64,000 bases of DNA, taken from assembly GCA_020746875.1 (NCBI GenBank), contig JAGTJL010000015.1:434001-498000 (forward strand). Reading direction: 5' to 3'. The DNA is from Rhexocercosporidium sp. MPI-PUGE-AT-0058 (Eukaryota > Ascomycota > Leotiomycetes > Helotiales). The position numbers were made by a program, and so were the translations under genes. The notes under the pieces were generated by a model. The model made no database searches, was not told where the DNA came from, and saw nothing but the letters and a program-made list of their open reading frames with translations. Of this stretch, positions 27,814 to 29,415 are shown in pieces (position 1 is the first letter of the stretch; each line of letters opens with the position of its first letter).

Positions 27814-29415
27814 TTAGTTCATCTGTCTAATAAGAGCATTGATCTTGTCCTCTGTTTGATTTCATTAGCAGACATTCAGTCATCGTGGAAGGGTAACCCG
27901 AAGCTTAGAACATACCTCTGTTTCCGAGATCTCCTCCCTCAACGAAATGTCTGAACTTGCGAGTGCGGAATCCACCAGTAGGGTTGCTGAGCTTGAATGG
28001 CCAGAGGAAGTTGGCGGCTTGCTTGAAGTTGGGGCCGACGGTGAAGATCTCGTGGATCAAATCCTCCATGCAGACAATGCCGTACTTGCCGAGGTTGGTC
28101 TCGATGATGGAGTTGTCGGTGAGAGCAATGCGTTGCTTGTTGACCTTTCCGTATCCACGCTTGTAGATGAGCTCACGGACAGTCTTCAAGTTGGGGTAAC
28201 CGTAGGCGATCCATGGCTCAACAACCTTCAACATCTCAAGAGTGGCCTTGGTCATGCGAACAAAGACACCATTATTGATCTGGAGAAGACGGAGGAGTTG
28301 GAGGATCTTGCGGGGCTTTGGGGCGATCTTGTTGATACTGAAGACTGTCAGTGGAGATACTCAGGATGAAAAGATGTGAGGCTTACCCCTTGATACGGAC
28401 AACGAAGACCAGCTTGTCCTCAGCAGGGATGTAGAAGGTACCCTCTTGCTTGGCCAAACGTTGAAGACGGATCTTCTCACGCTCTTGGTCACGGTACTCC
28501 TTGACGTACTTCTCGGCACGCTTGAAGATGACACCACGCTTCTCCTTCTGGGCCTGTGATGAGAAGGTTAGTAATGATACAAACACATTCTCAATATACA
28601 TAGGGTAGCATCGGTGACAAAGTTCAGACCCGAAAGATGGTTAATTGGCGACAGCATCGACACCTAAATGTCTAGTCGCAAAAATGGTGTTATGCATCAT
28701 ATAAGTCCTGCGATGCCATCCTGTGTATATATATAAACAGCCCGACGTACCTTCTTCTTCTTCTCGAGCTCAGCAGTGCGCTCCTCCCGGGCCTTCTCCT
28801 GAGACTTGCGCTTCTTGAGGAGCGTCTCTGGGACGAGAATCTGGTCGTTGGTAGGGACGCTTCTATTCTCAGGTCAGTCTTGTGTCCTGCATACAAGTAA
28901 ATGTATGAAGTAGAGCGCCGAATGGGAATTGCAGCTGAAGCGCAGCATTCTCGCAGATGGCTAACTCGAAGGTATGGTTTTAATCGGTGAGAGACTTGAC
29001 GGTGATACCACTCTTTCAACCGGTAAAGGTAGTAGGATAGTCCTGCCAATCAAGTCTGAATCTCATCCAACAAGACCCCAGACAAAGTCTGGGAGGTATG
29101 CACGGCACATGATCAATCGTTTTGTAGCGCGAAGCATAGGTACTGACTGTGCGCGGCAATAGATTTAAAGGAGAAGTAGACCTTCAACCTCAATACCCCG
29201 TACTACATCTCTCATGACACAGGTCGGAACCTAGATCAATGAGGGAGAAGCTCAGGAAGAATCGAGCTACGAGCCATGCATCGGTCACTCTGAAGCTGAC
29301 CTTCGATGCAACTGCGCTCGAGCGAGAGGACACCGACTAGACTGAATCCAACACATTCGACGAACTATTCGAGAGTATTGGAGGGGGTAGGATGGGCGAC
29401 ATACGAGGCAGGCAT
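27814..29415 (-). CDS. RPL7: 60S ribosomal protein L7 (uL30)
   Basis: Minus-strand exons 29405-29415, 28751-28862, 28387-28553, 27916-28337 and 27814-27851 sum to 750 nt, 249 residues, the usual size. The N-terminus MPASSVPTNDQILVPETLL and the basic helix KKRKSQEKAREERTAELEKK are typical of eukaryotic L7. The uL30 core includes KLVFVVRIKGINKIAPKPRK and LLRLLQINNGVFVRM, followed by VEPWIAYGYPNLKTVRELIY and the ending EDKINALIRQMN. The first coding exon has only 11 nt, ahead of a 542-nt intron; such long first introns are common in fungal ribosomal protein genes. Intron 2 (197 nt) hosts a C/D snoRNA. The gene is divergent from ATS1 with 219 bp between starts. Confidence 0.96.
28619..28705 (-). 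ncRNA. Intron-encoded C/D box snoRNA (snR39/snR39b type) in RPL7 intron 2
   Basis: Inside the 197-nt second intron. The D box CTGA is at 28624-28627 and a C-box-like ATGATGC (one change from RTGATGA) is at 28694-28700, on the minus strand. Directly upstream of the D box is CCATCTTTCGGGT, the exact complement of the large-subunit rRNA stretch ACCCGAAAGATGG, which is nearly universal. Counting five bases back from the D box selects the G of CCCGAAAG. That corresponds to the yeast Gm805 target of snR39b, two bases from Am807 guided by snR39 and snR59. In yeast snR39 and snR59 also sit in RPL7 introns, so host and target agree. A GCGAC/GTCGC pair could fold the middle. The 5' and 3' ends are estimates. 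Confidence 0.78.

What the first reader, a model, noticed from the sequence alone, without database searches (positions are those of the whole stretch)
28619..28705. C/D snoRNA in an RPL7 intron, with the same host and rRNA target as in yeast
The intron carries a 13-base perfect complement to the near-universal 25S/28S stretch ACCCGAAAGATGG, placed directly before a CTGA D box. Yeast snR39 and snR59 are hosted in RPL7 introns and guide Am807; snR39b guides Gm805 in the same stretch. The position rule here picks the G, so this fungus may have the snR39b target in the snR39 host. The C box is imperfect.
Basis: partly seen in the sequence, partly recalled or inferred. Interest (0 to 1): 0.8.

Follow-up and report, generated by a model that had tools for sequence, protein, structure and literature searches.

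The report
Ribosome-methylation guide RNA in RPL7 intron
An intron of a fungal ribosomal protein gene very probably carries a small guide RNA that marks one nucleotide of ribosomal RNA for methylation; relatives of this RNA at this gene are already known in other fungi, and the open point is which of two neighbouring nucleotides it marks.

Summary
On the minus strand, intron 2 of the one RPL7 (uL30) gene found in a Cadophora-like Helotiales genome contains CCATCTTTCGGGT, a perfect 13-nt antisense to the 25S stretch ACCCGAAAGATGG, followed at once by CTGA. A one-off C box (ATGATGC) lies upstream; the C-to-D span is 77 nt. CATCTTTCGGG followed within 3 nt by CTGA occurs once in 62.7 Mb (reversed control: also once), so its place in this intron is what convinces. 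Rfam's snR39 model aligns end to end but at 22.7 bits (cut-off 40). Best reading: an ordinary intron-encoded box C/D snoRNA of the RPL7-hosted snR39/snR59 lineage, guiding 2'-O-methylation of the G equivalent to yeast Gm805 by the D+5 rule. Papers already report snoRNAs at orthologous fungal RPL7 introns, and intronic snoRNAs of N. crassa (Gm785) and T. rubrum (Rfam 'snR39', Gm808) are listed with what looks like the same G target. I found no separate guide for the neighbouring A807, either in this genome or in those two lists. A weak 10-bp D' complement to the same stretch (P about 0.03) is a bare lead. RNA, methylation, the fungus's own 25S and relatives' introns could not be examined.

The parts
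28554..28750 (-). Intron 2 of RPL7, host of the snoRNA (197 nt, phase 0, after codon 41)
   Evidence: C and D box positions; Rfam snR39 alignment covers 28622-28704
28694..28700 (-). C box ATGATGC (6 of 7 of RUGAUGA)
28680..28689 (-). CACCATTTTT, possible weak D' guide: 10 bp (one G-U) to the same rRNA stretch
   Evidence: P 0.026-0.028 in 2000 shuffles, post hoc; uses recalled rRNA context
28648..28679 (-). Inner hairpin with D'-like GACUAG (28672-28677) and C'-like AUGCUGUC (28650-28657), both shared with the Rfam snR39 consensus
28628..28641 (-). D guide ACCATCTTTCGGGT; C at 28632 is fifth from the D box and pairs with the G of ACCCG
28624..28627 (-). D box CTGA
28711..28718 (-). 5' arm of an 8-bp external stem, TGGCATCG
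   Evidence: P 0.06
28606..28613 (-). 3' arm of the external stem, CGATGCTA
   Evidence: P 0.06
28567..28573 (-). Branch-point sequence TACTAAC
29405..29415 (-). RPL7 exon 1 (11 nt)
28751..28862 (-). RPL7 exon 2
28387..28553 (-). RPL7 exon 3
27916..28337 (-). RPL7 exon 4
27814..27851 (-). RPL7 exon 5 with stop

Best explanation
Intron 2 of RPL7 carries a box C/D snoRNA. The RPL7 pre-mRNA is spliced, snoRNP proteins protect the C/D core in the excised intron, and exonucleases trim it to roughly 85 nt. The D guide pairs with 25S rRNA at ACCCGAAAGATGG, and fibrillarin methylates the nucleotide paired five bases upstream of the D box, the G equivalent to yeast Gm805. Shown here: the sequence elements, their order and spacing, the host gene and intron, and that the guide-D box core occurs once in the assembly. 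Inferred from established box C/D biology: processing, snoRNP assembly and methylation. By host intron and shared inner blocks it belongs to the RPL7-hosted snR39/snR59 lineage, but its register is that of snR39b.
For: Guide-D box adjacency, C box and spacing. Core pattern once in 62.7 Mb; 1 of 4 genomic 13-mers has a D box. The Rfam snR39 model aligns over positions 1-95 with UGAUG, GACUAG, AUGYUGUC and ACCAUCUUUCGGG-N-CUGA in order, E 0.28 for 4227 families, which I divide to about 7e-5 for one family. RPL7 intron position kept in 82% of fungi studied, with a C/D snoRNA in eight intron-poor species (PMC8476143, section 10 and passages); snR39 said to be at orthologous loci of ascomycetes and basidiomycetes (PMC2246297, one passage). 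Register: E. histolytica ...CATCTTTCGGGTCTGA is listed for the G805 equivalent and ...CCATCTTTCGTCTGA for the A807 equivalent (PMC3542256, passages); ours has the first spacing. N. crassa CD47 (intron, D guide, 16/0) is listed for Gm785 = snR39b, and T. rubrum TRnc_2265 (87 nt, intron, Rfam snR39) for Gm808.
Against: The snR39 score (22.7) is below the cut-off of 40; no Rfam family reaches its cut-off in the window, and a genome search with RF01197 found 0 matches at E 0.001, not even this locus. This is weak evidence: two U14 candidates of this genome also miss their cut-off (51 and 41.5 against 64). The C box is imperfect. Folding is no better than shuffles (z -0.30; 75 of 200 fold as well); the external stem is marginal (P 0.06). 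The reversed control of the core pattern also hits once. No relative's intron could be aligned, and 25S rDNA was not retrieved (exact 28-mer absent; RF02543 unanswered in 13 tries). Three CTG-clade yeasts were reported to lack snR39/snR59 (PMC5033589, passage).
Confidence: 0.88

Rival explanations
1. The snoRNA is real but marks A807 as in yeast (alone, or together with the G), by a register shifted two bases from the D+5 rule or through its D' region.
For: Yeast snR39/snR59 in the same host are assigned to Am807, although the Rfam snR39 consensus has the G spacing. No separate A807 guide was found among 48 genomic places read or in the N. crassa and T. rubrum lists. A 10-bp D' complement exists (P 0.026-0.028).
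Against: The D+5 rule and the E. histolytica spacing pair select the G; published lists give G for two filamentous fungi; the D' match is post hoc and its D' box is poor.
Confidence: 0.1
2. A decayed snoRNA or chance match: the intron keeps the guide string but makes no stable RNA.
For: Imperfect C box, marginal stem, sub-threshold Rfam score, no folding signal.
Against: Guide and D box are intact next to each other (2.4e-8 expected in this intron); inner blocks still match the snR39 consensus; no other G805 guide of this exact form is in the assembly; a C box ending in a pyrimidine (AUGAUGY) is described for another fungal intronic snoRNA motif (PMC5640933, passages).
Confidence: 0.05
3. A splicing regulator of RPL7 rather than a guide RNA: the intron hairpin binds L7 and controls splicing, as proposed for the published rpl7 motif.
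For: A ~30-nt rpl7 motif is described in RPL7 introns of 17 species and proposed to regulate splicing (PMC5640933, passages).
Against: That proposal rests on location and RT-PCR showing a splice product; it does not explain the guide, the D box or the C box here. The motif's own alignment was not seen.
Confidence: 0.03

Closest known systems
S. cerevisiae snR39 / snR59 (second introns of RPL7A / RPL7B), Rfam RF01197
   Same: Host gene and intron 2; full-length collinear match to the Rfam model with shared GACUAG, AUGYUGUC and guide blocks; same rRNA stretch. That the intron sits at the same codon is recalled for yeast.
   Different: Published target is Am807; ours selects the G by the D+5 rule; score below the curated cut-off.
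N. crassa CD47 and T. rubrum TRnc_2265
   Same: Intronic; assigned to Gm785 and Gm808; CD47 D-guided and equated with snR39b in its table; TRnc_2265 named snR39 by Rfam. That CD47 is the Rfam snR39 of N. crassa is my inference from its asterisk and the paper's introduction.
   Different: CD47's row says northern and RT, but the asterisk footnote says not detected by experimental methods.
snR39b / SNORD2 (Rfam RF01299)
   Same: Same methylated nucleotide by the position rule.
   Different: RF01299 gave 0 matches in the genome, in a search whose controls rang nowhere. In chicken the relative sits in EIF4A2 with a 5' guide (PMC2653536, passage), not in RPL7 with a D guide.
E. histolytica Me-Eh-LSU-G926
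   Same: Identical string CATCTTTCGGGTCTGA, listed for the G805 equivalent.
   Different: Distant organism; a shared guide is expected from the conserved target and does not show common descent.

Membership tests
box C/D methylation-guide snoRNA | C box RUGAUGA near the 5' end | tested here: inconclusive
   ATGATGC, 6 of 7; variant AUGAUGY described for another fungal intronic snoRNA motif
box C/D methylation-guide snoRNA | D box CUGA directly 3' of the guide | tested here: met
   CTGA at 28624-28627, adjacent
box C/D methylation-guide snoRNA | 10-21 nt antisense to rRNA ending at the D box | tested here: met
   13 nt to the stretch named in the finding, 14 with one recalled base; the fungus's own 25S was not retrieved
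box C/D methylation-guide snoRNA | terminal or external stem joining C and D | tested here: inconclusive
   8-bp external stem, P 0.06 in 20000 shuffles
box C/D methylation-guide snoRNA | stable snoRNP RNA and 2'-O-methylation of the target | not testable with these tools
   needs RNA data
Rfam RF01197 snR39 | score at or above the gathering cut-off (40 bits) | tested here: not met
   22.7 bits over model positions 1-95; 0 genome matches at E 0.001. Not filed as a curated member
RPL7-hosted snR39/snR59 lineage | located in the second intron of RPL7 | tested here: met
   intron 2, phase 0 after codon 41; yeast location
RPL7-hosted snR39/snR59 lineage | guides Am807 | tested here: not met
   D+5 selects the G; spacing pair in E. 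histolytica agrees. By rule only; methylation not measured
snR39b / SNORD2 (RF01299) | guide register selects the G805 equivalent | tested here: met
   by rule only
snR39b / SNORD2 (RF01299) | match to the family model | tested here: not met
   0 matches in the genome (its controls rang nowhere, so weak) and not among the 7 hits listed

The most novel reading that the evidence does not exclude
In filamentous ascomycetes the RPL7-hosted snoRNA has taken over Gm805 from snR39b and also serves the neighbouring A807, through its weak D' antisense or a shifted register, so that one snoRNA modifies two nucleotides two bases apart. As a corollary, the published ~30-nt 'rpl7 motif', proposed as a splicing regulator, would be the D'-C' hairpin of this snoRNA.
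Probability: 0.1. Interest if true: 0.45.

Novelty: new member of a known kind. Interest (0 to 1): 0.22.

Why it matters
It adds a Helotiales member to a snoRNA-host pairing reported as kept across most fungi, one that Rfam's cut-off misses. It makes a small question testable: where related guides differ by two bases of register, which nucleotide does the RPL7-hosted copy mark, and what marks the other? The conflict between the register of the Rfam snR39 consensus and the yeast Am807 assignment deserves a check.

Tried and rejected
Rfam scan of the whole window: nothing at the cut-off. RPL7 loci of relatives: viral contigs, 45 pattern stretches, none a relative; genome contigs, 292, none a relative. 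Guide-D pattern in viral contigs: 5 contigs, looked at only around the match. C box-guide-D pattern: viral contigs gave 2 of those 5, with the same sequence around the match; genome contigs gave 6 records, all 6 titled bacterial MAGs, taken as chance and not examined. So no comparative alignment was possible.

A second snoRNA in the other RPL7 introns: intron 1 (542 nt) has one C-box word of 6 of 7 and no CTGA 45-140 nt after it; introns 3 and 4 are 49 and 64 nt.

A separate A807 guide in the genome: CATCTTTCGN{0,3}TGA gives 48 places against 37 for the reversed control. All 48 were read (30, 18). Three (L025, L030, L063) extend the antisense to ACC: L025 and L030 have no C-box word of 6 of 7 in the 90 nt upstream and no CTGA in the 110 nt from the match; L063 has a 6-of-7 word and CTGA but lies in a frame open across all 301 bases fetched. 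L027 has a perfect C box but no ACC, no CTGA, and a 532-aa open frame. None is convincing; guides with mismatches in the core would be missed.

The D'-C' pattern GACTAG...ATGYTGTC is not distinctive by itself: 14 genome hits against 9 for the reversed control. Folding of the region is not significant. The weak SNORD96, TtnuCD19, ceN109, IMPDH, TCL6_1 and sR16 hits were not pursued.

Rejected or left open: filing it as an Rfam snR39 member (cut-off not met); calling the D' match a guide (post hoc, one sequence).

Full report
Gene and host. The region reads on the minus strand as a five-exon RPL7 (uL30) gene; joining the exons gives an uninterrupted 249-aa protein. The best named hits are Cadophora gregata (98% identity) and Cadophora sp. 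DSE1049 (99%), then Diplocarpon, Drepanopeziza and Rhynchosporium, among the 120 of 7807 hits listed. I therefore take the window to be from a Cadophora-like Helotiales fungus. The assembly is 62.7 Mb, and a protein search found one RPL7 gene in it. Exon 1 is 11 nt and intron 2 is phase 0 after codon 41; I recall the same 11-nt first exon and second-intron position for yeast RPL7. The snoRNA is in the second intron in both (yeast: PMC5295604, passages).

The element. In intron 2 (28554-28750) the order on the transcript is: 5' splice site, 50 nt, C box ATGATGC, inner hairpin with GACUAG and AUGCUGUC, guide ACCATCTTTCGGGT, CTGA, 55 nt to the branch A, 14 nt to the 3' splice site. N. crassa snoRNAs mainly lie 41-60 nt from the 5' splice site (PMC2780460, passage). 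An 8-bp external stem encloses the core at 10 nt on either side, but 6% of shuffles reach it. Overall folding is not better than shuffles (75 of 200 fold at least as well), so it speaks neither way.

Chance. The 13-mer is found once in the window with up to one mismatch; mean 0.06 in 100 shuffles. The 17-mer of guide plus D box is expected 2.4e-8 times in this intron and 0.015 times in the genome under a dinucleotide model. The looser genome-wide pattern gives 1 hit and its reversed control also 1, so the pattern alone would not convince; its position in the intron where other fungi keep a snoRNA to the same stretch does. If any antisense to any rRNA position is allowed (about 5,500 positions, recalled), the expectation for this intron rises to roughly 1e-4, before the C box and the host are counted.

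Family. Rfam's snR39 model (RF01197) aligns over its full length to 28622-28704 with 22.7 bits, E 0.28 for 4227 families, under the cut-off of 40. A genome search with that model found nothing at E 0.001, this locus included. The cut-off is a poor guide here: the U14 model finds two full-length candidates in this genome at 51 and 41.5 bits, both under its cut-off of 64. Beyond the guide, the alignment shares UGAUG, GACUAG, AUGYUGUC and AAUUA in order. The D'-C' words are not rare in a genome (14 hits, reversed control 9). I call it a homologue of the RPL7-hosted snR39/snR59 lineage without filing it as a curated RF01197 member. The SNORD2/snR39b model gave nothing, in a search whose controls also rang nowhere.

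Which nucleotide. Counting back from CTGA: T, G, G, G, C. The fifth base, C at 28632, pairs with the G of ACCCG. E. histolytica supplies a clean pair: CATCTTTCGGGTCTGA is listed for the G805 equivalent and CCATCTTTCGTCTGA for the A807 equivalent (PMC3542256, passages). P. falciparum PFS8 holds CTTTCGGGTCTGA and is listed for Gm805 (PMC2656528, passages). Ours has the G spacing. In N. crassa the intronic CD47 (D guide, 16/0) is listed for Gm785 and equated with snR39b (PMC2780460, sections 3, 4 part 1 and 10 and passages). Its row says northern and RT, while the asterisk footnote says not detected by experimental methods; I cannot resolve this. In T. rubrum, TRnc_2265, 87 nt, intronic, Rfam snR39, is listed for 25S Gm808 (PMC3890542, section 8 part 1 and passages); that this is the same site is my inference. 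I saw no entry for the A two bases on in either C/D table (55 and 58 snoRNAs by the papers' counts). In this genome I read all 48 places with CATCTTTCG near TGA (reversed control 37) and found no convincing A807 guide.

A loose end. The Rfam snR39 consensus printed ends CUUUCGGGGCUGA, which by the same rule also selects the G, whereas yeast snR39 and snR59 are assigned to Am807 in the passages I read (PMC8307265; PMC2806949; PMC5295604; PMC8476143). I did not see the S. cerevisiae sequences, so this stays a question.

Prior knowledge. [quoted passage not shown] A 2021 study found the RPL7 intron position in 82% of fungi, with a C/D snoRNA in its eight intron-poor species (PMC8476143, section 10 and passages). 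Another reports no snR39/snR59 ortholog in three CTG-clade yeasts (PMC5033589, passage), so the pairing is not universal. A table of ancient snoRNAs places snR39/59 with U51/U32 and snR39B with another clan (PMC3511168, passages). My paper searches listed no title on this snoRNA in Helotiales, the only one with Helotiales terms, listed 8 of 186 papers, so this is no proof of absence.

Two weaker ideas. First, CACCATTTTT (28680-28689), four bases before CUAG, can form 10 bp with the same rRNA stretch (P 0.026 by length, 0.028 by energy, 2000 shuffles each). It could serve A806 or A807, depending on where D' is taken to begin, but it was chosen after the fact and no relative was available. Second, the published rpl7 motif (about 30 nt, 22 examples in 17 species, all in RPL7 introns; A. 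nidulans products of 437 and 253 bp imply a 184-nt intron; PMC5640933, passages) fits the 32-nt D'-C' hairpin in size and place. I did not see its alignment; this is inference. A paper on unusual C'/D' motifs that modify several sites (PMC5389607) was seen only as a search listing.

Verdict. Very probably a real and ordinary box C/D snoRNA: a new member of a known kind, with a small testable question about register.

Noticed in passing
window 28648-28679 (-): The 32-nt D'-C' hairpin fits the size and place of the published 'rpl7 motif' (about 30 nt, only in RPL7 introns), proposed by its authors as a splicing regulator; it may be a piece of this snoRNA (PMC5640933, passages).
   Followed up: partly
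Rfam RF01197 consensus as printed: The snR39 consensus has the spacing CUUUCGGGG-CUGA, which by the D+5 rule selects the G805 position although yeast snR39 is assigned to Am807.
   Followed up: partly
window 29405-29415 and 28863-29404 (-): RPL7 exon 1 is only 11 nt and is followed by a 542-nt intron; I recall the same 11-nt first exon in yeast RPL7.
   Followed up: partly
window 29545-30717 (+): A 390-aa open frame with RCC1-like repeats (judged by eye) starts head to head with RPL7.
   Followed up: no
L081 and L082 (G000:C6:901046-901151 and G000:C34:2105155-2105259): Two full-length U14 (SNORD14) candidates at 51 and 41.5 bits, both under Rfam's cut-off of 64; Rfam cut-offs may be too strict for snoRNAs of this fungus.
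   Followed up: no
L010 and L011: Two of the four genomic copies of the 13-mer lie in similar flanking sequence on two contigs, apparently copies of one repeat.
   Followed up: no
[quoted passage not shown]
   Followed up: no
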